Positions 17,385-58,320 of a stretch of DNA of 64,000 bases are shown in pieces. The DNA is from Cellulomonas sp. URHE0023. GTDB taxonomy: Bacteria > Actinomycetota > Actinomycetes > Actinomycetales > Cellulomonadaceae. Numbering within the stretch: position 1 is the stretch's first letter; each line of letters starts with the position of its first letter. A program made the position numbers and the translations under genes. The notes under the pieces are model-generated. The model made no database searches. It was not told where the DNA came from and saw only the letters and a program-made list of their open reading frames with translations. The stretch is from positions 124,001-188,000 of the forward strand of contig NZ_JIAN01000006.1 of NCBI RefSeq assembly GCF_000688475.1, in the 5' to 3' direction.

Positions 17385-17849
17385 TCACGCGCCGGCCGCG
17401 TCCCGGTGCGGGCTGGGGTGGAACGTCATGCGGTACTTGCCGATCTGCACCTCGTCGCCCGCGCGGAGCACGGACTGGTCGATGCGCGTGCGGTTCACGT
17501 AGGTGCCGTTCAGCGACCCGATGTCTCGGACGACGAACTGGCTGCCCTCTCGGACGAACTCGGCGTGCTTGCGGGACACGGTCACGTCGTCGAGGAAGAT
17601 GTCAGCCCCGGTCGACCGGCCCGCGACCGTGCGGTCCGCGTCGAGCAGGAACCGTGCACCGGCACTCGGGCCGCGCTGCATGACCAGCAGAGCAGACGTG
17701 GGCGGCAGCGCGTTGACCGCGCCGACCTCGTCCTGGGTCAGTCCGACCGGGGCGCCCGCCTCGATCTCCACCTCGATCGGCTCGATCGCGCCGAAGCTCA
17801 TCGTGGTGTCCGGCCCAGGTCCCCCGACCTGCGGATCCTCGCTGTTCAT
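17385..17849 (-). CDS. garA: GarA-like FHA protein
   Basis: 154 residues. The FHA domain is residues about 72-145: VAGRSTGADIFLDD, VSRKHAEF and DIGSLNGTYVNRTRI contain the Arg, Ser and Asn that read phosphothreonine. Upstream is GPDTTMSFGAI, corresponding to the ETTS motif whose threonines are phosphorylated by PknG or PknB in M. tuberculosis GarA; adjacent Thr-Thr is kept. Unphosphorylated GarA binds and controls 2-oxoglutarate dehydrogenase and glutamate dehydrogenase, and phosphorylation makes its FHA domain bind its own N-terminus. The putative kinase, PknG, is encoded at 52.0-54.3 kb. Longer insert between Thr motif and FHA than in mycobacteria. Confidence 0.92.
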   Translation of the reverse strand: MNSEDPQVGGPGPDTTMSFGAIEPIEVEIEAGAPVGLTQDEVGAVNALPPTSALLVMQRGPSAGARFLLDADRTVAGRSTGADIFLDDVTVSRKHAEFVREGSQFVVRDIGSLNGTYVNRTRIDQSVLRAGDEVQIGKYRMTFHPSPHRDAAGA

Positions 17850-42973: not shown

Positions 42974-43024
42974 GGTCCAGGTAGCCGGTGCAGCACCGGA
43001 AGCCATGAACCCAGGAGGTACATC

Positions 43025-43570: not shown

Positions 43571-43574
43571 GCGC

Positions 43575-43955: not shown

Positions 43956-44034
43956 GGCGGCCTCCAGCGCGGGCCAGACGACCATCGGCTGGCCGGCTGG
44001 TTCGACCGTAGGACCACGCGCGGAGGCGGTCAAC

Positions 44035-44061
44035 GGTCACGTCGTGGGTGTCGGCTACGTC
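44035..44061 (+). promoter_or_regulatory. Candidate autoregulatory promoter, ECF41-like
   Basis: GGTCACG (44035-44041), 16 bases, CGTC (44058-44061). The ECF41 group is reported to use TGTCACA-N16-CGTC; here the -10 and spacing match exactly and the -35 matches 5 of 7. It lies 31 bases before the sigma factor start. Confidence 0.4.
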
Positions 44062-44092
44062 AGGAGGGTGAAACGACGAGAGGATGACCGCG

Positions 44093-44959: not shown

Positions 44960-44982
44960 GGACCGGGTTCCGGGGCGCCCGA

Positions 44983-45243
44983 TCAGGCCGTGGCGTGCGT
45001 CGACCCCTGCGGCGCGCTCGGGACGTAGGTCACGCGCTGGGCGGGCATCAGGATCCACAGGATCGGGTAGATGAGCAGCTGACTGCCCGGGAGGACGAGC
45101 AGGACCAGGACGAAGAGCAGGCGTGCGGGCCAGGGCTCGATGCCGAACCGCTGCCCCAGGCCTGCGCAGACGCCACCCAGGACCCTGCCCTGGACCGGAC
45201 GGACCAGCCCCTGCTCGGTCATGCTCTCGTGGATCGTTCCCAT
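44983..45243 (-). CDS. PspC-domain membrane protein
   Basis: 86 residues. LVRPVQGRVLGGVCAGLGQR is the PspC signature and RLLFVLVLLVLPGSQLLIYP with ILWILMPAQ the membrane hairpin. PspC proteins sense envelope stress or modulate phage-shock responses; stand-alone forms in actinobacteria are uncharacterised. ATG 45243 has AGGAAG 7 bases before it. Convergent with the SigJ-like gene. Confidence 0.87.
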   Translation of the reverse strand: MGTIHESMTEQGLVRPVQGRVLGGVCAGLGQRFGIEPWPARLLFVLVLLVLPGSQLLIYPILWILMPAQRVTYVPSAPQGSTHATA

Positions 45244-45499
45244 CGTGTCTTCCTGCCCCTTCGTCTGTCGTGCTCGTGTACCTCCCATCGTGGTCGCCGG
45301 ACTGTGTGCACACATCGGGGGTTCCCCGGAGTTCCACCCTGAGCGGAGTCGCTCGTCCCCCTGGCCTGGGACGCCTAGGCTCTCGGGGTGGCCGTGCTAG
45401 TTTCGGCGCGACACATGCTTGACCATCCCGTGACCATTGAGCGATATGGCGATGACGCAGTCTCCATCGCTTGTTCCGTGCTGGACGTGAAGGACGACG
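45244..45499 (+). promoter_or_regulatory. Upstream region of the TelA-PknG operon
   Basis: A 256-base interval with no gene seen. TTGACC (45419-45424) and GATATG (45443-45448), 18 bases apart, are a possible -35/-10 pair about 50 bases before telA; the A/T content rises locally around them. GCGATG...CATCGC (10-base loop) is a weak dyad after it. If this is the only promoter, it drives ten genes. Confidence 0.35.
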
Positions 45500-46717
45500 A
45501 TGACCGACGCAGCCCCCCTCCAGCCCCCGGCTCCGCAGTCGGTGTTCGCGCTCGAGGCGCCCGCTCCGCCCGTCCCGGTGTCGACGACGCAGGCGCCCGC
45601 GATGGCACCCAAGATCGACGCTGCCGCGCTGCCAGGCCTCGACGCGAAGGTCGACGCGTACGTCACCAGCCTCATGGCCGCACAGGCCGGGTCGCCCGAG
45701 CTGGCCGCCAAGGCCGACGACATCCGTCTCATGGGTGACTCCGACATCCGCGCCGCGGCGGACAGCTCCAACCGCCTCCTGCAGACGCCGGTCAAGGCGA
45801 TGCGTGACGGCGGCGTCTCGGGCACCTCCCAGATCAGCAAGTCGCTGCTCGACCTGCGCAAGACCGTCGAGGACCTGGACCCGAGCGAGGCCACGGTCGG
45901 CAAGAAGCTCCTCGGACTCATCCCGTTCGGCGACTCGCTGACCGACTACTTCCGCCGGTACGAGAGCTCGCAGAAGCAGATCGACGCGATCGTCCGCGCC
46001 CTGTACAACGGTCAGGACGAGCTGCGCAAGGACAACGCCGCGCTCAACCTGGAGAAGCAGCACCTCTGGGACACGATGGCGCGCCTCCACCAGTACATCT
46101 ACGTCGCCGAGTCGCTCGACACGCGCCTGTCGGCGACCATCGCGCAGCTGGACGCGACCGACCCCGAGCGCGCCAAGGCGCTGCGCCAGGACGTCGTGTT
46201 CTACGTGCGCCAGAAGCACCAGGACCTGCTCACGCAGCTCGCGGTGAGCATCCAGGGCTACCTGGCGATCGACATCATCATCAAGAACAACCTGGAGCTC
46301 ATCAAGGGCGTCGACCGCGCCACGACGACCACCGTGTCGGCGCTGCGGACCGCCGTGATCGTGGCGCAGGCGCTCAACAACCAGAAGCTCGTGCTCGATC
46401 AGATCACCGCGTTGAACACGACGACCTCGGGTCTGATCGCCTCCACCGCGAAGATGCTCAAGGAGCAGTCCGCGGACATCCAGCAGCAGGCCGCCAGCGC
46501 GACCGTCGGCCTGGCCCAGCTGCAGCAGGCATTCAGCGACATCTACGCGACCATGGACTCGATCGACGACTTCAAGGTCAAGGCGCTCGACTCGATGGCC
46601 CAGACCGTCGGGGTCCTGCAGACCGAGACCACCAAGGCGCAGAGCTACCTCGACCGGGTGCGTCGCGCAGACACCACCGAGGTGGCGGGCGGATCGCTCG
46701 ACCTCGGGCTGAGCTGA
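45500..46717 (+). CDS. telA: TelA-family (toxic anion resistance) protein
   Basis: 405 residues, largely helical, Pfam TelA type. A Pro/Ala-rich N-terminus is followed by LPGLDAKVDAYVTSLMAAQA, the conserved VGKKLLGLIPFGDSLTDYFR and RYESSQKQIDAIVRALYNGQ, and FYVRQKHQDLLTQLAVSIQG with IIIKNNLELIKGVDRATTTT. Named for tellurite resistance, but the broad role appears to be in envelope or stress complexes. First gene of a ten-gene operon; ATG 45500 has GAAGGA 6 bases upstream. The next gene resembles its usual XpaC partner. Confidence 0.92.
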   Translation: MTDAAPLQPPAPQSVFALEAPAPPVPVSTTQAPAMAPKIDAAALPGLDAKVDAYVTSLMAAQAGSPELAAKADDIRLMGDSDIRAAADSSNRLLQTPVKAMRDGGVSGTSQISKSLLDLRKTVEDLDPSEATVGKKLLGLIPFGDSLTDYFRRYESSQKQIDAIVRALYNGQDELRKDNAALNLEKQHLWDTMARLHQYIYVAESLDTRLSATIAQLDATDPERAKALRQDVVFYVRQKHQDLLTQLAVSIQGYLAIDIIIKNNLELIKGVDRATTTTVSALRTAVIVAQALNNQKLVLDQITALNTTTSGLIASTAKMLKEQSADIQQQAASATVGLAQLQQAFSDIYATMDSIDDFKVKALDSMAQTVGVLQTETTKAQSYLDRVRRADTTEVAGGSLDLGLS

Positions 46718-46748
46718 ACTTGCCGGTCTGCCGAGGATCGAGCGCTGG

Positions 46749-47288
46749 ATGAGCTGGTTCGGACGCCTGCGGGGGCAGCGTCGACAGCCCGAGGTGCCCG
46801 CCGAGCCACCCCCTCCGACGTCGGCGGAGATCGTCGCGTCCGCCCACGCCGTCGAGCAGCAGATCGTGGGACGCGTGCCCGCTGCGGTGACCGCGCGCGT
46901 CCACGGCATCGCACGCACGGTCGAGGTCATGGCACCGCGCCTCGACCGGCTCGGAGCCGGTAGCCACCAGGCGTTCACGGTCGTCGCGACCGCGACGAGC
47001 TACCTGCCCGAGGCGGTCGGCAGCTACCTGCGGCTCCCCCGCGACTTCGCCGACCGGCGCGTGGTGTCGAAGGGGAAGACCTCCCTGATGCTGCTGTGCG
47101 ACCAGCTCGACCTGCTCGACCTCACGCTCGACAAGATCTCCGACGCTGTCTCGCGGCAGGACGCGGACGCGCTCGTCGCGCACGGCCTGTTCCTGGCGGA
47201 GAAGTTCGGCGGCGGCTCGTCGCTCGAGCTCGCCCCCGACGCGGGCCGCGACACGCCACAGGCGGGGAGCCCGGTCGACCACCCATGA
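46749..47288 (+). CDS. XpaC-like partner of TelA
   Basis: 179 residues. A short basic N-terminus (SWFGRLRGQRRQPE) is followed by a Pro-rich linker and a helical domain with YLPEAVGSYLRLPRDFADRR, VVSKGKTSLMLLCDQLDLLD and LTLDKISDAVSRQDADALVA. The arrangement of LP...YL, GK and a long final helix resembles the C-terminal part of XpaC proteins that pair with TelA, although similarity is modest. Stop overlaps the AAA gene start. Probably cytoplasmic. Biochemical role unknown. Confidence 0.65.
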   Translation: MSWFGRLRGQRRQPEVPAEPPPPTSAEIVASAHAVEQQIVGRVPAAVTARVHGIARTVEVMAPRLDRLGAGSHQAFTVVATATSYLPEAVGSYLRLPRDFADRRVVSKGKTSLMLLCDQLDLLDLTLDKISDAVSRQDADALVAHGLFLAEKFGGGSSLELAPDAGRDTPQAGSPVDHP

Positions 47289-48673
47289 CTGGAGCAGCGA
47301 TGAGACTGTCCGACGCCCTCGACGCGCTGGAGCGTGCCGGCGCCGCCGCCGGCCTGGACGCCGCGGCGGCCCGTGACGAGGGTGCGCGGCTGTCGGCCGC
47401 TGTAGCCGAGTCGATCACCGGGGCACCGGGCGCATGGCTCACGGCGGTCGGCTCGCCGGACGCCTCGTTCGGTGCGTTCTTCGAGGCCGCTGCCAGTGCT
47501 CGTCGGTGGCGGACCTCGCCGACCGACCTGCTCGCCGGGATCGCCGGGACACCCGCGGGGGACGCGTACGCGGCGGCCCTCGCCGACGTGATCTCGGCCG
47601 CCTGCGAGCTCGGGCCTGCGGACATCGGCGTCATCGCCCGCGCCTCGGCGACGGCCGCCGTCCAGCTGGCGACCACCCGGGGCGCAGGGCCTGCTGCGCC
47701 AAGCGCAGACCCGCCGTCTGCCGTGCCGTTCCCGGGCCTGCCAGCTCCTGCGGCGGCCGCCGCAGGAGCCGCGTCGGCGTGGACGCCGAGCGACCCTGAG
47801 CCCAGGGAGCGCACGCTCGAGGAGCTGCTCGCCGAGCTGGATGCGCTCGTCGGGCTGGCCGCCGTCAAGGAGCAGATCCGCCAGCAGACACAGCTCCTGC
47901 GCGTCGAGCGCCTGCGCACGGAGGCCGGTCTCACGACGCCCACGCTCACCCGGCACCTTGTCTTCCTCGGGAACCCCGGGACGGGCAAGACGACCGTCGC
48001 CCGGCTCGTGTCCGGCATCTACCGTGCGCTCGGGCTGCTGACCAAGGGGCACCTGGTCGAGGTCGACCGGTCCGAGCTCGTCGCCGGCTACCTCGGGCAG
48101 ACGGCCGTGAAGACGTCCGAGGTCGTGGCCACGGCGATCGGCGGCGTGCTGTTCATCGACGAGGCGTACGGCCTGGCCGAGGACCAGTACGGCGCCGAGG
48201 CGGTGAACACGCTGGTCAAGGACATGGAGGACCACCGTGAGGATCTCGTCGTGATCGTCGCCGGATACCCAGGACCGATGGCGACGTTCCTCGCGACCAA
48301 CCCCGGGCTCGAGAGCCGGTTCTCGACGACGGTCGAGTTCACCGACTACACCGACGCGGAGCTGCGCGAGATCTTCGAGCGGACCGCTCGCAAGGCCGAC
48401 TTCGAGCCCTCGCCCGAGACGCTCGCGCGGTTCGAGGAGATCGCCTCGCTCCAGGTCCGCGACGAGGGGTTCGGGAACGGCCGCTACGTGCGCAACATGC
48501 TGGACCAGGCCATCACCCGGCACGCGTGGCGCCTGCGGGACGTTGAGCAACCGAGCGTCGAGCAGCTCAGGCTGCTGCTCCCGGAGGACCTCGTGGCGGC
48601 GCCCGACGACGGGGACCACGAGCCGGAGCACATGGCGGTCGCCGAACCGACACACCTGGAGGAGCCCGCGTGA
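47285..48673 (+). CDS. CbbX/SpoVK-type AAA ATPase
   Basis: 462 residues. The N-terminal 175 residues are Ala-rich and helical with no recognised domain. The AAA module starts at LDALVGLAAVKEQIRQQTQL and includes Walker A FLGNPGTGKTTVARL (near 229), VGKLVAGYLGQT-type pore region (SELVAGYLGQTAVKTSEVVA), Walker B GVLFIDEAYGL (near 288) and the Arg region NPGLESRFSTTVEF. CbbX/SpoVK-like ATPases remodel protein complexes; in other genomes they are linked to type VII secretion or rubisco. ATG 47285 overlaps the previous stop (ATGA). Confidence 0.92.
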   Translation: MTGAAMRLSDALDALERAGAAAGLDAAAARDEGARLSAAVAESITGAPGAWLTAVGSPDASFGAFFEAAASARRWRTSPTDLLAGIAGTPAGDAYAAALADVISAACELGPADIGVIARASATAAVQLATTRGAGPAAPSADPPSAVPFPGLPAPAAAAAGAASAWTPSDPEPRERTLEELLAELDALVGLAAVKEQIRQQTQLLRVERLRTEAGLTTPTLTRHLVFLGNPGTGKTTVARLVSGIYRALGLLTKGHLVEVDRSELVAGYLGQTAVKTSEVVATAIGGVLFIDEAYGLAEDQYGAEAVNTLVKDMEDHREDLVVIVAGYPGPMATFLATNPGLESRFSTTVEFTDYTDAELREIFERTARKADFEPSPETLARFEEIASLQVRDEGFGNGRYVRNMLDQAITRHAWRLRDVEQPSVEQLRLLLPEDLVAAPDDGDHEPEHMAVAEPTHLEEPA

Positions 48674-49941
48674 CGCAGACGATCGCACCGCCGCAACCTG
48701 CGCCCCTGCCCGTCCCGTCCGTCGCGGCGACGAAGCGCCGCGGGGCGCTCAGCCGCACGCCCGGACGTATGCGCCTCGCGGGCGTCGTCGCCGTGCTGGC
48801 GTCGCTGGCGGTCGGCGTGCTCGGCGTCCAGACGGGCCAGGCGCAGTCGAAGGCGCTCGCGAGTGCGGAGGCCGACACGCGGCAGCTCGTCGGCATCCAG
48901 GATGTGCGCAACGACCTCGTGGTCGCGGACGCGACGGCCACCAACGCGTTCCTCGTCGGCGGGCTCGAACCGCCAGCGCAGCGCGCGACGTATGACGAGG
49001 CGATCGCCTCGGCTGCCAACGGTCTTGCCCGGCTCGCCGGTTCGAACGAGGCGGACGCGGAGCTGCTCGGCAAGGCGACCGCGGGCCTGACCACCTACAC
49101 GGGGCTCGTCGAGCAGGCGCGTGCGAACAACCGTCAGGGCTTCCCCGTCGGTGCCGCCTACCTCGATCAGGCCTCCACGGTGCTGCGCTCGGACGTGCTG
49201 CCTGAGCTCGACACCCTGGTGCAGACCAACGCCGACCGGGTCGACTCCTCCTTCGACGCCGTGAGCGCGACGCCATGGCTGCTCGCACTCGGCCTGGTCT
49301 CGCTCGTCGCGTTCGTCGTCGTGCAGACGTGGCTCGCGAGGCGTACGCACCGGCGGCTCAACTCCGGCCTGTTCTGGGCGACGATCCTCGCCCTGGCCGC
49401 CAGCGTCGCGGGCGCCTTCGTCCTGGGTACCACCGCGGCGTCGGCCTCGGACGTCCGGGACGGCTCGTATGCGGACACGGTCGCGGTGTCGAAGGCGTAC
49501 TCGCTCGCGAACGACGCCAAGTCCATGGAGTCGTTCACGTTGATCAAGCGCGGCTCTGGCCAGGCGTACGAAGAGACGTTCCAGTCCGAGACCGCGCAGG
49601 CGCGCGAGCTGCTGGCAGGCGTCGACGACGCGCTCGTGCAGTCGCTCGACGCGTGGACCGCCAAGCACGCCGAGATCCGCGAGAAGGACGACGCGGGCCA
49701 GTGGGACGAGGCGGTCGCGCTCGCGATCAGCACCGAGCCGGACTCACCCAATGCGGCGTTCGACGCGTTCACGACTGCGGCGTCCGAGAGCCTGCAGGCC
49801 AGCGCGGCGGCGACCCAGGAGGCGCTGTCCGGGGCGGGAAGCTCTGCGGTGCTCGTGGGCTGGCTCATCCTCGCGGCCGGTCTGCTGGCGGCCGTCCTCA
49901 GCTGGCGCGGGATCTCGAAGCGGGTGGAGGAGTACCGGTGA
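48670..49941 (+). CDS. glnX: GlnX-like membrane sensor
   Basis: 423 residues, four membrane helices (about 33-55, 202-222, 235-256, 392-413), making two external helical loops of about 145 and 135 residues. The loops look like tandem four-helix sensor domains (LVGIQDVRNDLVVADATATN, SLANDAKSMESFTLIKRGSG). No kinase or HAMP domain follows. This layout and its position just before GlnH and PknG match mycobacterial GlnX (Rv0412c), which passes the ligand state of periplasmic GlnH to PknG across the membrane. GTG 48670 overlaps the AAA stop. Confidence 0.85.
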   Translation: MTQTIAPPQPAPLPVPSVAATKRRGALSRTPGRMRLAGVVAVLASLAVGVLGVQTGQAQSKALASAEADTRQLVGIQDVRNDLVVADATATNAFLVGGLEPPAQRATYDEAIASAANGLARLAGSNEADAELLGKATAGLTTYTGLVEQARANNRQGFPVGAAYLDQASTVLRSDVLPELDTLVQTNADRVDSSFDAVSATPWLLALGLVSLVAFVVVQTWLARRTHRRLNSGLFWATILALAASVAGAFVLGTTAASASDVRDGSYADTVAVSKAYSLANDAKSMESFTLIKRGSGQAYEETFQSETAQARELLAGVDDALVQSLDAWTAKHAEIREKDDAGQWDEAVALAISTEPDSPNAAFDAFTTAASESLQASAAATQEALSGAGSSAVLVGWLILAAGLLAAVLSWRGISKRVEEYR

Positions 49942-50903
49942 GGCGCACACCGCTGGGCCGTAGGGGCCTGCCCGCCATCGTCGCGCTGGCCGTCGGGGCG
50001 CTCGTCGTCCTGACCGGGTGCGACCCGTCGACGACGCCCGACCCTCAGGTCACCGCGACGCCTGAGCCGACCCCGGCAGCCGCTGCCCCGGTCGTGGAGT
50101 GCGACGACGCGACCACGTCGTACGCTCCCGACCCCGGCCTCACCGGAAGCACCGTGCAGGCGATCCAGGCGCGCGGCTCGCTGACCGTCGGGGTCTCGGC
50201 GGACACGCTGCTCATGGGCTCGCGCGACCCGCTGACCGGACAGATCGAGGGCTTCGACATCGACGTGCTGCACCTCGTGTCTGCGGCGCTGTTCGGCGGC
50301 GACCCGAACAGGCTCCAGTTCCGGGTCATCACCTCCGGCCAGCGCTTGGACGTGCTGAAGAACCACGAGGTGGACCTGGTCGCCCGCACGTTCACCATGA
50401 ACTGCGCGCGATGGCAGGACATCGCGTTCTCGGCCGAGTACCTCCAGGCCGGACAGAAGGTCCTGGTCACCCGGGACTCGACCGCGACGAGCATCGACGA
50501 CCTGGCCGGCCAACGGGTCTGCGCGCCCGAGAGCACGACGACCCTCGAGCGGCTGAAGGACGACTACCCCGAGGTCACCGCGGTCAGCGCGCCGACGCAC
50601 ACGCAGTGCCTGGTGCTGTTCCAGGAGGGTCGCGTGGACGGCATCACGGGCGACGACACGGTGCTGGCCGGATTCGCGGCGCAGGACCCGTACGCCAAGG
50701 TCGTCGGCGACGCGCTGAGCTCCGAGCCGTACGGTGTCGGCGTCGCGGCCGACCAGGTGGACCTGGTGCGGTTCGTCAACGCGGTCCTGGACCGGGCGAA
50801 GGCGGACGGCACCTGGGCGGCGATGTACGACCGCTGGCTGCACGCGCTCGGGCCCGCACCGGTGCCGCCGGCGTCGGTCTACGGCCGGGTCCCGCCCAGG
50901 TGA
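49938..50903 (+). CDS. glnH: GlnH-like solute-binding lipoprotein
   Basis: 321 residues. Signal peptide with lipobox VVLTGCDPS (Cys near 28), Pro/Thr-rich linker, then a type II amino-acid-binding fold: GSLTVGVSADTLLMGSRDPL, GFDIDVLHLVSAALFGG, EVDLVARTFTMNCARW, GQRVCAPESTTTLERL and EPYGVGVAADQVDLVRFVN. Two Cys pairs suggest disulfides. No ABC permease or ATPase is nearby, so it is a sensor component, as shown for mycobacterial GlnH, which binds Asp and Glu. GTG 49938 has GGAGGAG 5 bases upstream and overlaps the GlnX stop. Confidence 0.9.
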   Translation: MRRTPLGRRGLPAIVALAVGALVVLTGCDPSTTPDPQVTATPEPTPAAAAPVVECDDATTSYAPDPGLTGSTVQAIQARGSLTVGVSADTLLMGSRDPLTGQIEGFDIDVLHLVSAALFGGDPNRLQFRVITSGQRLDVLKNHEVDLVARTFTMNCARWQDIAFSAEYLQAGQKVLVTRDSTATSIDDLAGQRVCAPESTTTLERLKDDYPEVTAVSAPTHTQCLVLFQEGRVDGITGDDTVLAGFAAQDPYAKVVGDALSSEPYGVGVAADQVDLVRFVNAVLDRAKADGTWAAMYDRWLHALGPAPVPPASVYGRVPPR

Positions 50904-52009
50904 CGGCGCCCGACGCACCCGAGGCCCCGGGGCGGCTCGGCGAGCCGATCCCGGCGCCCGAGCTGCTCACCTACCTGGGCGGGCTGGACGCGTGGCTGAG
51001 CCACCGCCGCACCGAGCTGGACCGGCTGGACGCGGCCGCACAGGCCTCGGTCTCCGTCGAGTCCTACACGGCAGACGTTCTCCTCGCGCTGACCATGTGG
51101 CAGGCGATCCGGACGCGCGCCGACGAGCTGGTCACGGTGTGGGACTCGGGCCGGGCCGACGCGGTCGACCGCGAGAAGATGTCGCGCCTCATCTGGGGCC
51201 GGCTGGACTCCGGTCTCGGCTCGGCGCTGGTGTCGCTCGTCGAGGCCGTGACCCTCTGCGACGCGATGATCTCCAAGGTCCGTGCCCGCCTGTCGTTCGA
51301 CCCGGACAGCGCCGACCAGGCCGAGCGGTTCCGGGGTCTGCGCGCCGGTCTGGTGCGCTGCGAGGACCTCGCCGGCACGGACGCGACGGCCGCCGAGCGC
51401 GTCGCGGCGCTGCGTCGACGCGAGCAGAAGCTCGTCACGCAGGCGGCCCGTGGCGCTGACGTCACCGGCCCGCTGGGCGAGCTCGAGGCCGAGGCGGCCC
51501 GTGCCGAGCGGGATCTCATCGTCCACGTGTCCCAGCGCCGCACGCTCGACAAGGGCCGCGCCGACGCAGCGTCCACGCTCGCCGCTCTCGAGACCCGTGA
51601 ACCCACGCTGCACGAGCTGGCCGACCGGTGCCGCCGAGAGATCGCGAATCCCCCCAAGCTCGCGGTGCCCGACGTCTCACGCCTGGGCGCGGTCCCCGGG
51701 ACCCGCCAGGAGCTCGACGCGTTCGTCGACCGGCTCGCGGCGGTGGGCCGAGCGTTCGACGCGGTGGCGGACGCGTACAGCGAGCCTCTGCGCGAACGCG
51801 CGGAGCTCCGCTACAAGCTGACCGGTGCGCACGCCACCGCGGACGCGAACGGCCGGAGTGCGTCACCGACCGTCCGGTCGGGCTACGAGGAGGCGCATGC
51901 CGCGGTCAGCGCGACGCCGTGCGACGTCACCGTGGCCCGGTACCTCGTCGAGCAGTACCTGTACCTCACCCGCGACCTGCCCACGGCAGCTCAGGAGGGA
52001 TCGCGATGA
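50900..52009 (+). CDS. Helical protein of unknown function between glnH and pknG
   Basis: 369 residues, no signal peptide, membrane segment or Cys cluster. Mostly long helices rich in Ala, Arg and Glu: WLSHRRTELDRLDAAAQASV, LTMWQAIRTRADELVTVWDS, ERVAALRRREQKLVTQAARG and ELEAEAARAERDLIVHVSQR; coiled-coil likely at about 170-240. No family recognised. GTG 50900 overlaps the glnH stop and its own stop overlaps the pknG start, so its dose is tied to both. A cytoplasmic adapter between GlnX and PknG is one possibility; that is inference. Confidence 0.8.
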   Translation: MTAPDAPEAPGRLGEPIPAPELLTYLGGLDAWLSHRRTELDRLDAAAQASVSVESYTADVLLALTMWQAIRTRADELVTVWDSGRADAVDREKMSRLIWGRLDSGLGSALVSLVEAVTLCDAMISKVRARLSFDPDSADQAERFRGLRAGLVRCEDLAGTDATAAERVAALRRREQKLVTQAARGADVTGPLGELEAEAARAERDLIVHVSQRRTLDKGRADAASTLAALETREPTLHELADRCRREIANPPKLAVPDVSRLGAVPGTRQELDAFVDRLAAVGRAFDAVADAYSEPLRERAELRYKLTGAHATADANGRSASPTVRSGYEEAHAAVSATPCDVTVARYLVEQYLYLTRDLPTAAQEGSR

Positions 52010-54288
52010 CCGCCATCCACTGCACCGAGATCGGGTGCGACGGCTACTACGAGGACGGCTGGTGCAACGTCTGCGGGTCGCCGCAGCCAGCAGGTGCGTC
52101 ACCGGCCTCCGCGACGACGCTCCTGGGTACCGGTGTCGCTGAGACGCAGTGGGCCCCGGCGGGCGACGACGACTCCGAGCGCTCCACGCGCACCGGACGC
52201 ACGAGCTCCACGCAGCTCGCCACGGCGGCCCTCGGGTCTGCGCGGACCGCGGCGACCGGCGGGTCACGCCCGACGCGTCGGGTCGGCACGTCCTCGACGC
52301 GGCTGCGGGGTGCGCGCCTCGGCGCGGGGCTGACGACGGTCCCCCCGGCCCCGGTGCAGGACCCGCTGCAGGCGGTCATGGCCGTCGCCGAGGTGCCCGA
52401 ACGCAAGCGATTCTGCCCGTCGTGCGGCGCGGAGGTCGGCCGGACCCGAGACGGCGTGCCAGGCCGGTCCGCCGGGTTCTGCCCCCAGTGCGGCAACCAC
52501 TTCGACTTCACGCCGGCGCTCAACCCCGGGGACGTGGTCGGTGGGCAGTACGAGGTCGTCGGCTGCCTCGCGCACGGCGGCCTCGGCTGGATCTACCTCG
52601 CCCGGGACCGGAACGTCTCCGGCCGGTGGGTCGTGCTCAAGGGTCTGCTGAACTCCGGCGACCCCGACGCGTTCGCGGCGGCGATCTCCGAGCGGCAGTT
52701 CCTGGCCGAGGTCGAGCACCCGCTGATCGTCGAGATCTACAACTTCGTCATGCACGAGGGTGCCGGCTACACGGTCATGGAGTTCGTCGGCGGCCGGTCG
52801 CTCAAGCAGATCCTGCAGGACCGCCGGGACGCCAACGCCGGGGTGAACAGCCCGCTGCCCGTGGACCAGGCACTGGCCTTCGTCCTGGAGATCCTGCCTG
52901 CCTTCGCCTACCTGCACGACGTCGGGCTGCTGTTCTGCGACTTCAAGCCCGACAACGTCATCCAGCAGGGAGACTCCGTCAAGCTCATCGACCTGGGTGG
53001 GGTACGTCGGATCGACGACCTGGCCTCAGCGATCTTCGGGACCGTCGGATACCAGGCGCCGGAGGTCCCCGAGGTCGGTCCGTCGGTCGCCTCGGACATC
53101 TACACGATCGGGCGCACCCTGGCGACGCTCGTGCTCGACTTCCGTGGGAACACGACGACCTTCGTGACGTCGCTTCCGTCAGTCTCCGACACGCCCGTGT
53201 TCCAGAGCTACGACTCGTTCTACCGGCTGCTGGCCAAGGCGTGCGCGCCCGACCCGGCGGACCGGTTCGCCACCGTCGACGAGCTGCGCGCGCAGGTGCT
53301 CGGGGTGCTCCGCGAGGTGGTCGCCACCGACCGCGGGCCGGGAAGCCCTGCCTTGCACTCGGCGGCCTCGATGCTCTTCGAGGCGCCGGCGTCGGACGAG
53401 GCCGGACACCCGTTGGCGTGGGACCAGCTGCCCGCCCTCAAGGTCGATCCTGGTGACCCGGCGGCGAGCTGGCTCTCCGGGGTCAACGTCAGCGATCCGG
53501 TGCAGCGGCTCAGCGCTCTCGACGAGGCACCCGATGACTCGGTCGAGGTGCGGCTCCGCCGTGCGAGCACCGCGATCGAGGCGGGCAGGCAGGACATCCT
53601 GTCGGACACGCTCGCCCAGATGCTTGCCGACGACCCGTGGGAGTGGCGTGCGGCGTGGCTGGGTGGCCTGGCACAGCTGGCCAACGGGGACCCCGTCGCG
53701 GCACGTGCGTCGTTCAACGCCGTCTACGGTCAGGTCCCCGGCGAGCTCGCTCCGAAGCTGGCGCTCGCAACGGCCTGCGAACGCAGTGACGAGGCGGAGA
53801 TCGCGGAGTCGCTGTACGTGATCTGCGCTCGCTCCGACGCCAACTACACGGCACCAGCTGCGTTCGGCCTGGCGCGCATCCGCAGCGCGCGCGGCGATCT
53901 CGAGGGAGCGTTGCACGCGCTCGACCTCGTCGCCTCGACCCGAAGCTCCTACGTGGATGCACGGATGATGCGGGCGCGGCTGCTCGCACTGTCCACGGGC
54001 GACGTCGCACGGCTGTCGCAGGCGCTCGGCAGCGTGCAGACGGTGGTCCTGCCGCCCCTGCAGCACGCCGCGCTCCGGGTCGACGTGCTCGGCTCCGCGC
54101 TGGAGGCCGTCGTGACGCACGGCCCCGTGCAGGGGGTGCAGCTCGACGGCGTCCCCGCGCACGAGCCCGAGCTTCGCGACGCGCTCGAAGGAGCGCTGCG
54201 GCAGCTGGCATCCCTCACCGAGGACCACGACTCGCGGATCGCGCTCGTGGACCGCGCCCACGAGGTCCGGCGGTGGACCACGTGGTGA
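52006..54288 (+). CDS. pknG: Serine/threonine protein kinase PknG
   Basis: 760 residues, close to the 750 of M. tuberculosis PknG. An extra N-terminal zinc motif (C6, C11, C20, C23; GWCNVCGSP) precedes a Thr/Ser-rich segment with SSTQL and SSTRL. The rubredoxin-like site (FCPSCG...FCPQCG, about 135-165) is conserved, then the kinase: HGGLGWIYLARDRNVSGRWV, VVLKGL (catalytic Lys near 211), CDFKPDNV instead of HRDxKxxN, and LIDLGG replacing DFG, as in PknG. TPR-like helices from about 460 include VPGELAPKLALATACERSDE and AAFGLARIRSARGDLEGALH. Soluble. ATG 52006 overlaps the previous stop. Confidence 0.96.
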   Translation: MTAIHCTEIGCDGYYEDGWCNVCGSPQPAGASPASATTLLGTGVAETQWAPAGDDDSERSTRTGRTSSTQLATAALGSARTAATGGSRPTRRVGTSSTRLRGARLGAGLTTVPPAPVQDPLQAVMAVAEVPERKRFCPSCGAEVGRTRDGVPGRSAGFCPQCGNHFDFTPALNPGDVVGGQYEVVGCLAHGGLGWIYLARDRNVSGRWVVLKGLLNSGDPDAFAAAISERQFLAEVEHPLIVEIYNFVMHEGAGYTVMEFVGGRSLKQILQDRRDANAGVNSPLPVDQALAFVLEILPAFAYLHDVGLLFCDFKPDNVIQQGDSVKLIDLGGVRRIDDLASAIFGTVGYQAPEVPEVGPSVASDIYTIGRTLATLVLDFRGNTTTFVTSLPSVSDTPVFQSYDSFYRLLAKACAPDPADRFATVDELRAQVLGVLREVVATDRGPGSPALHSAASMLFEAPASDEAGHPLAWDQLPALKVDPGDPAASWLSGVNVSDPVQRLSALDEAPDDSVEVRLRRASTAIEAGRQDILSDTLAQMLADDPWEWRAAWLGGLAQLANGDPVAARASFNAVYGQVPGELAPKLALATACERSDEAEIAESLYVICARSDANYTAPAAFGLARIRSARGDLEGALHALDLVASTRSSYVDARMMRARLLALSTGDVARLSQALGSVQTVVLPPLQHAALRVDVLGSALEAVVTHGPVQGVQLDGVPAHEPELRDALEGALRQLASLTEDHDSRIALVDRAHEVRRWTTW

Positions 54289-55319
54289 GCGTCGCCTGTG
54301 GCTCGTGCGGGACGGTCGCGCAGGACGGGTCCAAGTTCTGCGAGCAGTGCGGCGCACCCCTGACCGCACCGGTCGCGGTCGCCGTGCCGCCGCCGGCGCC
54401 GTCGACCCGGTCGTGCCGTGCGTGCGGCGGGACCATCGCCGCCGACGGGTACTGCCAGGACTGCGGCACGCCGGCGGCGACCGAGCGCGACCACTGGTCG
54501 GAGGCGCCGTCGGCATCGCTGGGCGGTGTGTGCGACCGCGGCATCCGGCACGAGAAGAACGAGGACGCGATGGCGCTCGGCCTCGCCGGTGACGCACCCG
54601 TGCTGGTCGTCTGCGACGGAGTGTCGAGCGTGCCGGACTCCGACATCGCGAGCCTCGCAGCGGCACGCGCCGCACGCGACGTCCTGGTCCAGGGCATCTC
54701 GGTGCCGAGCGGCGACACGACGCGCGTCGCCGCGTGGTCCGCGCTGCTCGTGCGTGCGGCCGATGCCGCCAACAACGCCATCGCCACCGCCGTCGGTGAC
54801 CTGGCCGAGCGCCACGACCCGCCCTCGTGCACCTTCGTGGCCGCCGTGGTCGACGGGCCGAACGTGGTCGCGGGCTGGCTCGGTGACTCGCGGGTCTACT
54901 GGCTTCCCGATGCCGGTGACCCCATCCAGCTCAGCAGCGACGACTCGGGCGCCAACGAGCTCATGGCACTCGGACTGTCACGCGCGAAGGCGGAGGCCTC
55001 CGCCCAGGCGCACGCCATCACCCGCTGGCTCGGTGCCGACGCACCGGACATCGTTCCCCGTACCGCTCCTACGGTCGCCCAGGGGCCCGGTTGGGTGCTC
55101 GTCTGCTCCGACGGGCTGTGGAACTACTGCTCCGAGGCGAGCGCGGTCGCCGAGCTGGTGCGCACGTCGCAGGAGGTCGCCGGGCCGGCGCCGGAGAAGA
55201 TCGCGGCCGAGCTCGTGCGCTGGGCGAACGAGCAGGGCGGCGCAGACAACATCACCGCCGCACTGCACCGGATCGAGGTCGTGCACGGCACGGCCACGGT
55301 CGATACTGTCCACAGCTGA
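54285..55319 (+). CDS. PP2C-type protein phosphatase with two N-terminal zinc ribbons
   Basis: 344 residues. Two zinc ribbons open it: CGSCG...KFCEQCGAP and CRACG...GYCQDCGTP (about 4-65). The PPM/PP2C domain has RHEKNEDAMALG, VLVVCDGVSSVPDSD, WLGDSRVYWLPD, LVCSDGLWNYC and GGADNITAAL, supplying the metal-binding aspartates. No membrane segment, unlike PstP. Start set at GTG 54285, which overlaps the pknG stop as at the other junctions; GTG 54273 or 54282 are alternatives. Probably opposes PknG on shared substrates. Confidence 0.92.
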   Translation: MSVACGSCGTVAQDGSKFCEQCGAPLTAPVAVAVPPPAPSTRSCRACGGTIAADGYCQDCGTPAATERDHWSEAPSASLGGVCDRGIRHEKNEDAMALGLAGDAPVLVVCDGVSSVPDSDIASLAAARAARDVLVQGISVPSGDTTRVAAWSALLVRAADAANNAIATAVGDLAERHDPPSCTFVAAVVDGPNVVAGWLGDSRVYWLPDAGDPIQLSSDDSGANELMALGLSRAKAEASAQAHAITRWLGADAPDIVPRTAPTVAQGPGWVLVCSDGLWNYCSEASAVAELVRTSQEVAGPAPEKIAAELVRWANEQGGADNITAALHRIEVVHGTATVDTVHS

Positions 55320-55367
55320 CCTGCTGCCCCACCCACGCGCACCACCGTGCATCGACAAGGAGCCACA

Positions 55368-56651
55368 GTGGCCGAGTTCCACACCGAGGTGTTCCAGAAC
55401 GAGTTCCTCTCCGAGGGCGCCACGGACGTGCACGCGATCGTCACGGTGACCAGCACCGGAGCAGGGACAGCGGGGGCTGCCTCGGCCACGGGGACGGTCG
55501 CGGAGATCGTCATGGTGGACACCTCCGGCTCGATGCAGGGTCCGAACATCGACGCGGCGAAGTACGCGGCCCAGGTGGCCGTCGACCAGATCGCCGACGG
55601 GACGTGGTTCGCGATCATCGGAGGCAGCCACGTCGCCCAGCGCGCGTTCCCGTACCCGAACGCGCCGGTGGCCATCGTGCAGATGGAGCCCGGTGCGCGC
55701 CGCGAGGCCAAGCGTGCGATCTCCCTGATGTCGCCCACGGGCGGGACGGCGATGAGCACGTGGCTCCGCCTGGCCGACCAGGTGTTCTCGCAGGTCCCTC
55801 AGGCGAAGCAACGGCACGCGATCCTCCTGACCGACGGGAAGAACGAGTCGGAGCCTCGCGAGGAGCTCTCGAAGGCGATCCGCGACGTCACCGGGCGGTT
55901 CCAGTGCGACGCTCGCGGCGTCGGAGCGAGGTGGGAGGTGGCCGAGCTGCGAGAGATCGCGTCGGCCCTGCTCGGCACCGTGGACCTGATCGCCAACCCC
56001 TCGGACATCGCCGAGGACTTCCGTCAGCTCGTCGCCGCGTCGATGTCCAAGGGGGTCGCCGACGCCGAGCTGCGGGTGTGGGCGCCCCAGGGCGCCCAGG
56101 TGCTCTTCGTGCGCCGCGTGGCGCCGACGGTCGAGGACCTGTCGACCCGTCGGACCGAGGTGAACCCGCTGACCGGCGCCTACCCGACGGGGGCCTGGGG
56201 TGACGAGGCGCGTGACTACCACGTCGCCATCCGTGTCCCCTCCAAGCCCGTGGGCTCCGAGCAGCTGGCCGCACGGGTCCAGATCGCCGTCGGCGGCGAG
56301 GTGCTGACGTCGGCCCTGGTCAAGGCACGTTGGTCCGACGACAGCGCCCTGACGGCCCGGATCAACCCCGAGGTCGCGCACTACACCGGCCAGGCCGAGC
56401 TCGCGTCGGCGATCCAGGAGGGCCTCGCTGCCAAGGCCGCCGGCGACGAGGCGACGGCCACGGTCAAGCTCGGCCGCGCCGTCCAGCTCGCCCAGGAGAC
56501 CGGCAACGAGGAGGCGACGAGCCGCCTGCGGCGCGTCGTGGACATCGACGACGAGGAGAAGGGCACGGTCCGTCTCAAGCGCGATGCAGCCAAGCTCGAC
56601 GAGATGGCCCTCGACACGGCCTCCACGAAGACCACCCGGGTCCGCCGGTGA
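55368..56651 (+). CDS. VWA-domain protein
   Basis: 427 residues. The von Willebrand A domain begins at about 42, with MIDAS motif MVDTSGSMQGPNIDAAKYAA, GGTAMSTWLRLADQVF and LLTDGKNESEP (all metal-coordinating positions kept). The remainder is beta-rich (RVAPTVEDLSTRRTEVNPLT), then a helical C-terminus with TGQAELASAIQEGLAAKAAG and ATVKLGRAVQLAQETGNEEA. No signal peptide. Such VWA proteins with kinases and phosphatases occur in Ter-type stress islands, acting as assembly platforms. GTG 55368 has AAGGAG 4 bases upstream and is the only gene in the operon with a real gap (48 bases) before it after the AAA gene. Confidence 0.9.
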   Translation: MAEFHTEVFQNEFLSEGATDVHAIVTVTSTGAGTAGAASATGTVAEIVMVDTSGSMQGPNIDAAKYAAQVAVDQIADGTWFAIIGGSHVAQRAFPYPNAPVAIVQMEPGARREAKRAISLMSPTGGTAMSTWLRLADQVFSQVPQAKQRHAILLTDGKNESEPREELSKAIRDVTGRFQCDARGVGARWEVAELREIASALLGTVDLIANPSDIAEDFRQLVAASMSKGVADAELRVWAPQGAQVLFVRRVAPTVEDLSTRRTEVNPLTGAYPTGAWGDEARDYHVAIRVPSKPVGSEQLAARVQIAVGGEVLTSALVKARWSDDSALTARINPEVAHYTGQAELASAIQEGLAAKAAGDEATATVKLGRAVQLAQETGNEEATSRLRRVVDIDDEEKGTVRLKRDAAKLDEMALDTASTKTTRVRR

Positions 56652-57331
56652 GCACGGTCACCTGCCCGAACGGCCACGCCTCGGAGTCGACGGACTACTG
56701 CGACGTCTGCGGGTCCCCGATCACGGCGGTCGCCGTCGCGGTCGCTCCCCCGCCGGTAGCGGCCGCGCCGACGACCTGCGCGAACTGCGGCGCTCCCGCT
56801 GCGGCCGGTGCGCTGTTCTGCGAGACCTGCGGCTACGACTTCACGACGGGATCGCTTCCGGTGGCGAGCTCGACGCCGACCCCGGTGGTTCCCCCGGCCG
56901 CGTCCCCGACTCCCCCACCGGCCGGTCCGGACTCGTGGGTCGCCGAGCTCTGGATCGACCCCGACTGGTACGGCGCACAGAGTCCCGAGGACCCGATGCC
57001 GTCCGCCGGCCTTCCTGGTCTGGTGCCGTTGCGTGAGCGCAGCGTCCTGGTCGGACGACCTTCCGTCTCACGCAACATCCACCCGCAGGTCGACTGCGGA
57101 ACCGACTCAGGCGTCTCTCGCCGGCACTGCCAGCTGAACACCGACGGGCAGCGCTGGTGGGTCGAGGACCTCCAGTCGGCCAACGGCACCTACGTCAGCA
57201 AGCCTGGCGAGCCCGTGCCGACCACGCCGATCCCCGTCGGTCAGCGCCGCGAGCTCGAGGACGGCGACCGGCTCTTCCTCGGCGGGTGGACCCGGATCGT
57301 GATCCGCAAGGCCCTTCCGGGCGAGGTCTAG
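56648..57331 (+). CDS. FHA-domain protein with two N-terminal zinc ribbons
   Basis: 227 residues. The first ribbon (C6, H10, C18, C21; TDYCDVCGSPI) resembles the one at the N-terminus of PknG; the second is CANCG...LFCETCGYDF. A Pro/Thr-rich linker leads to the FHA domain (about 135-222): VLVGRPSVSRNIHP, GVSRRHCQLN and SANGTYVSKPG. The phosphothreonine-reading Arg, Ser and Asn are kept. It lacks the GarA ETTS-type motif. GTG 56648 overlaps the VWA stop. Last gene of the operon; likely reads a threonine phosphorylated by PknG. Confidence 0.92.
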   Translation: MSTVTCPNGHASESTDYCDVCGSPITAVAVAVAPPPVAAAPTTCANCGAPAAAGALFCETCGYDFTTGSLPVASSTPTPVVPPAASPTPPPAGPDSWVAELWIDPDWYGAQSPEDPMPSAGLPGLVPLRERSVLVGRPSVSRNIHPQVDCGTDSGVSRRHCQLNTDGQRWWVEDLQSANGTYVSKPGEPVPTTPIPVGQRRELEDGDRLFLGGWTRIVIRKALPGEV

Positions 57332-57335
57332 GCGG

Positions 57336-57758
57336 TCACGAGAGCGCCCCGGCGAGCTCGGCGTTGGCGCGCTCGGTCACCAGCGCGAGCACCCTGCCCG
57401 CTACGGCGAGGTCCTCGGGGGGCACGTCGCCGTAGAGCCGCGCGGTGATGGCCGTGATCGCGGCGCTCACGAGGGCAAACTTCTGCAGCCCGTCGGGTGT
57501 CAGGGTGAGCTCTTCCTCGTCCACCGCGACCAGTCCGAGGTCGATCACGCTCTCGACCGTGGCCCGCGCCGTCGCGTCGTCGACCTTCAGTCCACGGGCG
57601 AGGCGCGCGGCGAGGGCACGGCGCCCGCCTGTGCCGGTGTGCACCTGGTTCACGGCGACCCACTGCTCGAACTCCAGGCCGGAGTCGCGCAGGTGCCTCT
57701 CCAGAAGGGTTCGCGTCGCGCGCTCGGCCTGCCCGATGATCTGTCCGTTGAGCGTCAT
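57336..57758 (-). CDS. MarR-like winged-helix regulator
   Basis: 140 residues. Layout is MarR-like: an N-terminal helix GQAERATRTLLERHLRDSGL, the helical and winged part ALAARLARGLKVDDATARAT, then VESVIDLGLVAVDEEELTLT and a C-terminal dimer helix. The recognition helix is less typical than in the divergent MarR gene. ATG 57758 is preceded by GAGGACC. Its upstream region carries the nested palindrome at 57777-57827 shared with the other gene. Ligand unknown. Confidence 0.75.
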   Translation of the reverse strand: MTLNGQIIGQAERATRTLLERHLRDSGLEFEQWVAVNQVHTGTGGRRALAARLARGLKVDDATARATVESVIDLGLVAVDEEELTLTPDGLQKFALVSAAITAITARLYGDVPPEDLAVAGRVLALVTERANAELAGALS

Positions 57759-57776
57759 GGTCGGTCCTCTCGTAGT

Positions 57777-57827
57777 CGTTTGCGTCGCTAACGTTAGCCG
57801 TGCAAACGATCCGTGGCAAGACGTTTG
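57777..57827. promoter_or_regulatory. Nested dyad operator between divergent MarR genes
   Basis: GCTAACGTTAGC (57787-57798) is a perfect 12-base palindrome. CGTTTGC (57777-57783) and GCAAACG (57802-57808) are exact inverted arms with the same centre. A third half-site CGTTTG lies at 57822-57827, making another inverted pair with 57803-57808. Such size and symmetry fit binding of two or more MarR dimers between the two genes. Confidence 0.65.
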
Positions 57828-57845
57828 TCCCCCGAACGACTCTGC

Positions 57846-57851
57846 TAGCGT
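57846..57851 (+). promoter_or_regulatory. Leaderless -10 element for the MarR gene
   Basis: TAGCGT, then 7 bases to ATG 57859, with no ribosome site in between. Leaderless arrangement. The adjacent operator half-site at 57822-57827 lies in the -35 region. Confidence 0.5.
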
Positions 57852-57858
57852 CCCGACC

Positions 57859-58299
57859 ATGACGGGACCGGCACGAGTCGCTGCACTGCCCAGCTGGCTG
57901 CTCACCCAGACAGCCGCCCACGCGCACCGCCTCATCGTCGAGCGCCTGTCCGCGATCGGCGCCCGCGGGTACGACTACCGGGTGCTCGCGTCGCTCGACG
58001 AGCACGGCCCGACCAGCCAGGCGGAGCTCGGCCGAGGCACCGGCATCCACCTGAGCGACATGGTGGGCTGCCTGAACGACCTCGAGGCGGCCGGCTACGT
58101 CGAGCGCAGCCCCGACCCCGCGGACCGGCGTCGCAACGTCGTCACGATCACGCCTGCGGGCCGCGCACGGATGGAACGCCTGGGCACCGAGGCGGCGCTC
58201 GTCCAGGACGACCTGCTCGCACCGCTGTCCCCCGACGAGCGTGACCAGCTGGCGGCCCTGCTGGCTCGCCTCCTGGCGCACCACGACGCGCGCGCCTAG
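57859..58299 (+). CDS. MarR-family regulator
   Basis: 146 residues, canonical MarR. GYDYRVLASLDEHGPTSQAE and LGRGTGIHLSDMVGCLNDLE form helices 2-4; AAGYVERSPDPADRRRNVVT is the wing with the conserved D-x-R-D/R-R. No Cys, so not an OhrR-type peroxide sensor. Start is ATG directly after a TAGCGT -10. Divergent from the previous MarR-like gene across the nested palindrome and convergent with apbE. Confidence 0.9.
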   Translation: MTGPARVAALPSWLLTQTAAHAHRLIVERLSAIGARGYDYRVLASLDEHGPTSQAELGRGTGIHLSDMVGCLNDLEAAGYVERSPDPADRRRNVVTITPAGRARMERLGTEAALVQDDLLAPLSPDERDQLAALLARLLAHHDARA

Positions 58300-58320
58300 T
58301 CGACCTCGGCCACGCGTGGA

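What the first reader, a model, noticed from the sequence alone, without database searches (positions are those of the whole stretch)
45500..57331. Ten-gene operon embedding PknG-GlnH-GlnX in a TelA/AAA/PP2C/VWA/FHA apparatus
Seen: ten co-directional genes with stop/start overlaps (ATGA or GTGA) at seven of nine junctions, only 31- and 48-base gaps at the others. Known: GlnH-GlnX-PknG senses extracellular Asp/Glu and PknG phosphorylates GarA in mycobacteria; TelA, VWA, PP2C and FHA proteins recur in stress islands of the Ter type. Inference: the amino-acid sensing kinase is one part of a larger membrane signalling machine in which the AAA ATPase and VWA protein assemble or remodel a complex, PP2C resets the signal and the FHA protein reads it.
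Basis: partly seen in the sequence, partly recalled or inferred. Interest (0 to 1): 0.9.

Follow-up and report, generated by a model that had tools for sequence, protein, structure and literature searches.

The report
Ten-gene PknG amino-acid signalling cassette
In a Cellulomonas bacterium the nutrient sensor and kinase known from mycobacteria (GlnH, GlnX, PknG) sit inside a tightly packed ten-gene set that also encodes a phosphatase, a phosphate reader, scaffold-like proteins and a probable envelope-stress module, and the same set recurs in many related bacteria, so the well-studied three-gene version may be only part of a larger signalling machine.

Summary
It is no local oddity. Among 119 fetched PknG loci plus the window, the full order TelA-g2-AAA-GlnX-GlnH-g6-PknG-PP2C-VWA-FHA occurs in 46 rows (43 distinct, window included), with the same seven junctions overlapping in 38-45 of 46. 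Actinoplanes relatives, Streptomyces-like genomes and one of four Frankia loci keep a seven-gene core; mycobacteria-like genomes have GlnX-GlnH-PknG alone. PknG and GlnX occupy the same 22 of 58 related genomes. An extra zinc ribbon on the kinase goes with PP2C/VWA neighbours (94 of 100, against 4 of 15). TelA-g2 also exists without PknG. I read the cassette as a nutrient-gated kinase/phosphatase/FHA switch resembling the TerY-P triad, joined to a TelA module. Co-transcription, complexes and substrates are untested. Asp/Glu sensing is doubtful: a Trp ligand contact is His in 53 of 54 TelA-linked GlnHs. Whether the mycobacterial form is reduced or ancestral is unresolved.

The parts
45500..46717 (+). 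g1, TelA family protein (405 aa)
   Evidence: PF05816 1.5e-93; only TelA match in this genome
46749..47288 (+). g2, small helical TelA-partner protein (179 aa), no Pfam family; possibly a distant XpaC
   Evidence: helical AlphaFold model, pLDDT 82.7, pTM 0.72; hhalign 99.3% to proteins that follow TelA in PknG-less genomes
47285..48673 (+). g3, AAA+ ATPase of the SpoVK/EccA/CbbX type (462 aa) with a ~180 aa N-terminal extension
   Evidence: AAA_lid_6 6.4e-17, AAA 8.3e-15; Walker A and B patterns in 58 of 58 profile hits
48670..49941 (+). g4, GlnX-family membrane transducer (423 aa)
   Evidence: NF058618 2.1e-96, over cut-off
49938..50903 (+). g5, GlnH-like solute-binding lipoprotein (321 aa; LTGC lipobox read by eye)
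   Evidence: SBP_bac_3 5.6e-22; best solved match GlnH 6h2t 1.8e-66
50900..52009 (+). g6, all-helical elongated protein (369 aa), no Pfam family, candidate scaffold
   Evidence: AlphaFold pLDDT 89.6, pTM 0.54
52006..54288 (+). g7, PknG kinase (760 aa): extra N-terminal zinc ribbon, rubredoxin, kinase, TPR
   Evidence: PF16919, PF00069, PF16918; 2pzi 1.1e-140; N-terminal ribbon pattern
54285..55319 (+). g8, PP2C phosphatase with N-terminal double zinc ribbon (344 aa)
   Evidence: PF13672 1.3e-15, PF12773 1.8e-7
55368..56651 (+). g9, VWA + VWA_3_C protein (427 aa)
   Evidence: PF18571 6.2e-18, PF13768 7e-16; solved relative 4fx5, 6.5e-112
56648..57331 (+). g10, FHA protein with N-terminal zinc ribbons (227 aa)
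   Evidence: PF00498 2.4e-12; PF12773 26.7 bits against cut-off 27.3
17385..17849 (-). GarA/OdhI relative (154 aa), not in the cassette; candidate PknG substrate in the same window
   Evidence: NF041660 157.5 bits, below its 200-bit cut-off; DTTMSFG where ETTS would be (sequence)

Best explanation
The ten genes are one inherited signalling cassette. SHOWN (sequence): conserved order, conserved translational coupling, family signatures, PknG and GlnX in the same genomes. INFERRED: lipoprotein GlnH binds an amino acid outside the cell; GlnX passes the signal to PknG, probably at its TPR domain (proposed from genetics and structures in mycobacteria and Corynebacterium, not shown here); PknG autophosphorylates its N-terminal segment and phosphorylates FHA partners, g10 and perhaps the GarA relative; PP2C reverses this. 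Kinase, phosphatase and FHA protein carry zinc ribbons and are probably held together near the VWA protein and the helical protein g6, giving a phosphorylation-set assembly switch that works like TerY-P. In this clade the switch is wired to a TelA-g2 envelope module, which the AAA+ ATPase loads or remodels. Output: adjusting envelope state and central metabolism to amino-acid supply. My odds: about 85% that it is a functional unit, about 45% that the switch works as described.
For: Full order in 46 of 120 rows (43 distinct) with seven conserved 4-base overlaps, including AAA-GlnX in 45 of 46, the joint between the TelA module and the PknG core. PknG and GlnX in the identical 22 of 58 relatives; TelA in all 22 plus 11 more (Fisher p 3.9e-8, not corrected for kinship). 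Flanking genes shared by 1 of 27 loci compared, so the ten genes keep together while surroundings change. N-terminal zinc ribbon in 94 of 100 PP2C/VWA-linked kinases, 4 of 15 others, 0 of 9 from family f7, taken for Mycobacteriales; two ribbon patterns in 94 of 103 PP2Cs, one in 94 of 95 FHA proteins. A Ser/Thr pair before an LGxGL motif in 50 of 55 kinases of TelA-bearing loci. PF18571 VWA at the pknG locus in 4 of 4 Streptomyces-like genomes tested, absent in 7 of 7 f7 and 7 of 7 PknG-less Cellulomonas genomes tested.
Against: No expression, interaction or phosphorylation data. Exceptions: both Rathayibacter loci have no VWA or FHA hit although about 9 kb follow (L077, L097); Kineosporia L102 has only GlnX-GlnH-PknG yet keeps the ribbon; Paraoerskovia L096 has GlnX-GlnH-PknG-FHA only; three of four Frankia kinases lack the ribbon pattern. 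The Ser/Thr-LGxGL pattern is in only 1 of 9 f7 kinases and 23 of 51 others, so it is not a general PknG docking mark. TelA occurs in 11 of 58 relatives without PknG. Gene order can persist through transfer without joint function.
Confidence: 0.6

Rival explanations
1. Two modules share one promoter: a TelA-g2-AAA envelope-stress module and a GlnX-GlnH-g6-PknG-PP2C-VWA-FHA metabolic module were joined once in an ancestor and are kept together only by co-regulation and transfer; they do not act on each other.
For: TelA-g2 and TelA-AAA occur without PknG (L199, L200, L214-L219, L222); the seven-gene core occurs without TelA in Streptomyces-like, Actinoplanes-type and Frankia loci.
Against: AAA-GlnX overlap kept in 45 of 46 loci; within the own genus all 20 PknG+ genomes have TelA, 4 of 16 PknG- do.
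Confidence: 0.3
2. It is simply the known PknG-GarA nitrogen pathway; the extra genes are accessory and PP2C only balances GarA phosphorylation.
For: GlnX, GlnH and PknG are clear relatives of the studied proteins; a GarA relative is present.
Against: The GarA relative is in 57 of 58 relatives, 35 of them without PknG; VWA, g6 and zinc ribbons have no place in that model; GlnH side-chain contacts differ.
Confidence: 0.2
3. It is an anti-phage or selfish defence system of the TerY-P kind.
For: Kinase + PP2C + VWA make-up; TerY-P-like modules act against phages (PMC11090510, passages); patchy distribution and changing surroundings; PADLOC defence-kinase models match the kinase domain (best PD-T4-6, 4.3e-35).
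Against: No nuclease or other nucleic-acid module among the ten; those PADLOC matches cover the kinase, AAA and PP2C domains, none hits g9 or g10 (25 of 31 kinase rows shown); a dedicated amino-acid receptor is present.
Confidence: 0.08

Closest known systems
GlnH-GlnX-PknG-OdhI/GarA pathway of Corynebacterium and Mycobacterium
   Same: Same three families in the same order; rubredoxin, kinase and TPR layout
   Different: Seven further genes; extra N-terminal zinc ribbon on the kinase; GlnH Trp232 contact replaced by His; GlnX scores 138 against the 780-bit GlnX equivalog cut-off
TerY-P triad (VWA + PP2C + Ser/Thr kinase-zinc ribbon)
   Same: Kinase, PP2C and VWA side by side, zinc ribbons on the kinase
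   Different: Ribbons are N-terminal and the C-terminus is TPR; added FHA protein and solute-binding receptor; no DNA-processing genes among the ten
Actinobacterial kinase-zinc ribbon / PP2C / standalone vWA genes beside GAP1-N2 systems (PMC7159879, one passage)
   Same: Kinase, PP2C and vWA linked in actinobacteria
   Different: No GAP1-N2 gene recognised among the ten; PknG architecture and GlnX-GlnH present
XpaC-YaaN(TelA) operon of Bacillus and lmo1966-1967 of Listeria (passages)
   Same: TelA beside a small partner protein
   Different: g2 is not recognised as XpaC; AAA+ ATPase and signalling genes added
PknG paralogue loci in Streptomyces-like genomes (L145-L147)
   Same: PknG-like kinase followed by a VWA protein; in L145 and L146 also a small protein with a membrane segment (by eye) and a solute-binding lipoprotein
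   Different: SBP_bac_1-type receptor; trypsin-like protease in L146; no PP2C or FHA hit by the window-based profiles

Membership tests
GlnH-GlnX-PknG pathway | PknG architecture: rubredoxin, kinase, PknG_TPR | tested here: met
   PF16919, PF00069, PF16918 all over cut-off
GlnH-GlnX-PknG pathway | GlnX transducer beside the kinase | tested here: met
   NF058618 323.6 bits against 250; the narrower NF041460 is not met, 138 against 780
GlnH-GlnX-PknG pathway | GlnH with Asp/Glu side-chain contacts Arg147, Thr162, Trp232 | tested here: inconclusive
   Arg and Thr kept in the window, Trp is His; His in 53 of 54 GlnHs of TelA-bearing loci; residue roles from PMC6069109, passages
GlnH-GlnX-PknG pathway | GarA/OdhI substrate with ETTS motif | tested here: inconclusive
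   Relative present, 157.5 bits against 200; DTTMS instead of ETTS
TerY-P triad | VWA, PP2C and kinase encoded together | tested here: met
TerY-P triad | Zinc ribbon or OB-fold at the kinase C-terminus | tested here: not met
   Ribbons are N-terminal, C-terminus is PknG_TPR
TerY-P triad | TerY-type VWA | tested here: inconclusive
   No PADLOC hit for g9 at E 0.01; whether that library holds TerY models was not checked
XpaC (for g2) | PF10112 match | tested here: inconclusive
   PF10112 not among the Pfam matches of 24 members or in the own genome; hhalign 0.3% directly, 36% through relatives, in register at the YLP motif
CbbX / EccA / SpoVK (for g3) | Equivalog cut-off | tested here: not met
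   231 of 459, 232 of 467, 257 of 423 bits; AAA_lid_6 itself is met
Joint action of the ten products | Physical or phosphorylation links | not testable with these tools
   needs the bench

The most novel reading that the evidence does not exclude
PknG did not evolve as a stand-alone metabolic kinase: it is the kinase of a receptor-driven, zinc-ribbon-linked kinase/phosphatase/VWA/FHA switch (a nutrient-gated cousin of TerY-P), and the three-gene operon known from mycobacteria and corynebacteria, with GarA/OdhI as output, is a stripped-down remnant.
Probability: 0.35. Interest if true: 0.82.

Novelty: new variant of a known kind. Interest (0 to 1): 0.64.

Why it matters
PknG is known mainly from genomes where it stands with GlnX and GlnH (the papers seen here concern mycobacteria and Corynebacterium). 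If the larger cassette is a usual form, its phosphatase, its assembly partners and perhaps its original output are sitting next to the gene in harmless actinomycetes and can be tested there. It also gives the TelA family, whose mechanism is unknown (PMC12791056, passage), a signalling context, and links a TerY-P-like switch to a defined extracellular receptor.

Tried and rejected
Polarity of gene loss: the quick PknG tree (82 of 116 usable kinases), rooted on Streptomyces-like paralogues, puts the f7 (mycobacteria-like) clade inside the seven-gene loci (SH-aLRT 91), but holding paralogues and f7 together gives a tree 4.4 log units better, p-AU 0.587. So 'shown to be reduced' is withdrawn; the paralogue branches are 3.2-3.6 long. 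The VWA tree (62 rows) has an equally long outgroup branch.

g2 as XpaC: 0.3% by direct profile comparison; 96.8% only after L199 and Streptomyces-like proteins were added to the XpaC set, which is partly circular because L199 already matches the g2 profile; 36% between g2-like intermediates and XpaC. Of ten TelA neighbours scanned, PF10112 was over its cut-off in three (L208, L209, L210), below it in L211, and not found in L199, L201, L202, L204, L206 and L212. Left as a lead. A profile search for g2 over the 396-genome phylum sample found 2 genomes, G000 and G139 (8 candidates scored a genome).

First maps lost genes because long ORFs overlap at high GC, and called L147 without PknG; replaced by trimmed profiles. 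Rows dropped: L103, L105, L142, L169 from the kinase tree (short or fragmentary); 34 more by hand for speed, mostly close relatives; three short rows from the VWA tree; five kinases without a recognisable glycine loop from the ribbon count. L160, L162, L168 repeat L069, L063, L090 and stay in the counts. Of the 15 'no PP2C/VWA' kinases, L071 merely ends at a contig edge; of the six ribbon misses, L098 is cut at a contig start and L119 is split.

Motif counts used loose patterns (VWA DxSxS 65 of 100, FHA SRRH-type 53 of 95) and do not show that the others are inactive. No Rfam match at 43000-59000 at gathering scores. L221 (TelA-g2-AAA, no PknG found) ends at a contig edge in an 89% complete genome and shows nothing either way.

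Literature: PknG with VWA (one paper, unrelated mentions, passages); PknG with TelA (one paper, seen in the listing only). No held paper seen describes the larger cassette, but the main Ter survey (Anantharaman 2012) is not held and Fig. 2B of PMC6069109 cannot be seen, so earlier description is not excluded.


Full report
WHAT IS THERE. Families: TelA; g2 (none); AAA+ with AAA_lid_6; GlnX family; SBP_bac_3; g6 (none); PknG; PP2C with double zinc ribbon; VWA with VWA_3_C; FHA with zinc ribbons.

SURVEY. The named set was drawn by closeness to the window's kinase, so it is not an even sample. The full order was found in 46 of 120 rows; three rows repeat others, leaving 43, window included. Named carriers are Cellulomonas, Cellulosimicrobium, Oerskovia, Agreia, two Microbacteriaceae strains, Miniimonas, Sediminihabitans, Ornithinibacter, Actinotalea and Intrasporangium. 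Micromonosporaceae (Actinoplanes and kin), Streptomyces-like genomes (family code f6, my inference from genome size) and one of four Frankia loci have GlnX-GlnH-g6-PknG-PP2C-VWA-FHA without the TelA part; the other three Frankia loci end at contig edges. The g6 there is diverged and matches only in part. Exceptions against the pattern: Rathayibacter (no VWA or FHA hit), Paraoerskovia marina (FHA only), Propionicimonas and a Propionibacterium (no GlnH hit), one Pseudonocardiales bin (no AAA hit).

COUPLING. In the 46 full loci the 4-base overlap recurs at g2-AAA 39, AAA-GlnX 45, GlnX-GlnH 38, GlnH-g6 39, g6-PknG 39, PknG-PP2C 45, VWA-FHA 43; TelA-g2 1 and PP2C-VWA 9. The AAA-GlnX joint matters most, since it ties the TelA module to the kinase core. 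Of 27 loci compared with the window's flanking genes (blastp 1e-15), only L089 shares any: the ten genes stay together in changing surroundings. The flanks seen were about 3 kb upstream and 7 kb downstream where contigs allowed.

CO-OCCURRENCE. Among 58 relatives PknG is in 22, GlnX in the same 22 (21 over its cut-off), TelA in those 22 and 11 others (E 1e-10). In the genus, 20 of 20 PknG-bearing genomes have TelA against 4 of 16 without PknG (Fisher p 1.5e-6; kinship not corrected). In the 396-genome phylum sample PknG is in 27 and TelA in 17; five genomes have both, four of them Streptomyces-like with TelA at another place. A GarA/OdhI relative at E 1e-25 is in 57 of 58, none over the family cut-off, so it does not track the cassette.

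TELA AND g2. Of the 11 relatives with TelA but no PknG, the TelA locus has a g2-profile hit beside it in eight (L214-L219, L221, L222) and none in L220, L223 and L224; L221 is cut at a contig edge. L199, from the phylum sample, has one too; the other 14 TelA regions fetched from that sample have none, but L200 has TelA overlapping AAA. Profile comparison of g2 with eight such proteins from seven loci gives 99.3%. So g2 is a TelA partner rather than a PknG partner by origin. A protein search found 3021 g2 relatives among the 7999 candidates scored; the 120 listed carry no Pfam domain. In Bacillus and Listeria TelA pairs with XpaC (PMC3498285, PMC12791056; passages); kinship of g2 with XpaC is suggested by place and the YLP motif but not established.

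KINASE ANATOMY. The rubredoxin Cys pattern is in 111 of 115 kinases. In addition an N-terminal C-x(2-5)-C...C-x2-C ribbon (typically CxxxGCxGxxxDGYCxxCG) lies further upstream in 94 of 100 kinases with PP2C or VWA after them, 4 of 15 without, 0 of 9 from f7 (the three repeated loci are inside the 94). PP2C and FHA proteins carry ribbons too. I take this as a hint that the three are brought together; ribbons can serve other ends. A Ser/Thr pair before LGxGL (TSSTRLRGARLGAGL in the window) is in 50 of 55 kinases of TelA-bearing loci, 23 of 51 others and 1 of 9 f7 kinases. Autophosphorylated N-terminal Thr residues recruit the FHA substrate in studied species (PMC8546545, passages and Discussion); that this stretch does so here is my inference, and its scarcity in f7 speaks against a general mark.

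RECEPTOR. Of the contacts to the ligand backbone Arg169 is kept in 101 of 101 GlnHs, Asp250 in 99, and position 164 is Ser or Thr in all 101; of the side-chain contacts Arg147 is invariant (101 of 101), Thr162 varies (25 of 54 in TelA-bearing loci), and Trp232 is Trp in 7 of 7 f7 loci, Gln in 10 of 10 Streptomyces-like, His in 53 of 54 TelA-bearing loci (contact roles from PMC6069109, passages). The ligand is probably an amino acid; Asp/Glu is unproven here, although PMC6069109 predicts it within its Actinomycetales set (passages).

PARALOGUES. Streptomyces-like genomes hold a second PknG-like kinase next to a VWA protein (L145-L147); in L145 and L146 a small protein with a membrane segment (by eye) and a solute-binding lipoprotein of another family follow. 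The receptor changes while kinase and VWA stay, which supports a general receptor-kinase-VWA design. PMC6069109 already names kinases linked to solute-binding proteins in Streptomyces (passage). The pair also hints that kinase-VWA linkage is old, but the tree cannot fix the root.

MECHANISM AND NOVELTY. GlnH-GlnX-PknG signalling and TerY-P triads are known (PMC6069109 passages and one section; PMC9769921 passages; PMC8546545; PMC11090510, PMC4978471 and PMC7159879 passages). Their combination in one conserved cassette, the TelA-AAA arm and the ribbon correlation were not seen in any held paper, with the limits told under Tried and rejected. I file it as a new variant of a known kind. The unit itself is well supported; its workings are not.

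Noticed in passing
window 44983-45315, strand -: Small PspC-like membrane protein (recognised by eye) facing away from TelA just upstream; of 27 loci compared only L089 shares it.
   Followed up: partly
L157, L158, L159 (genome G399): One Cellulomonas genome has the full cassette plus three further PknG-like kinases, two of them near each other, without GlnX or GlnH hits nearby.
   Followed up: partly
L144-L147: Second PknG-like kinases in Streptomyces-like genomes: L145-L147 with a VWA protein after the kinase; L146 with a trypsin-like protease and an SBP_bac_1 lipoprotein; L145 with an SBP lipoprotein; L144 without VWA and with only a weak SBP match.
   Followed up: partly
L169 (genome G369): PknG locus with short, fragmentary GlnX, GlnH, PknG and VWA hits beside a full-length PP2C hit: decayed cassette or sequence errors.
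   Followed up: no
L202-L205: Streptomyces-like TelA loci: TelA followed by a protein with a weak VWA-profile hit and, in L202 and L204, a small membrane protein with a YLESRKN start.
   Followed up: partly
L078, L079, L101: A second, oppositely oriented PknG-profile hit downstream of the cassette.
   Followed up: no
window 44084-44959, strand +: ECF-type sigma factor gene upstream (recognised by eye); of 27 loci compared only L089 shares it.
   Followed up: no
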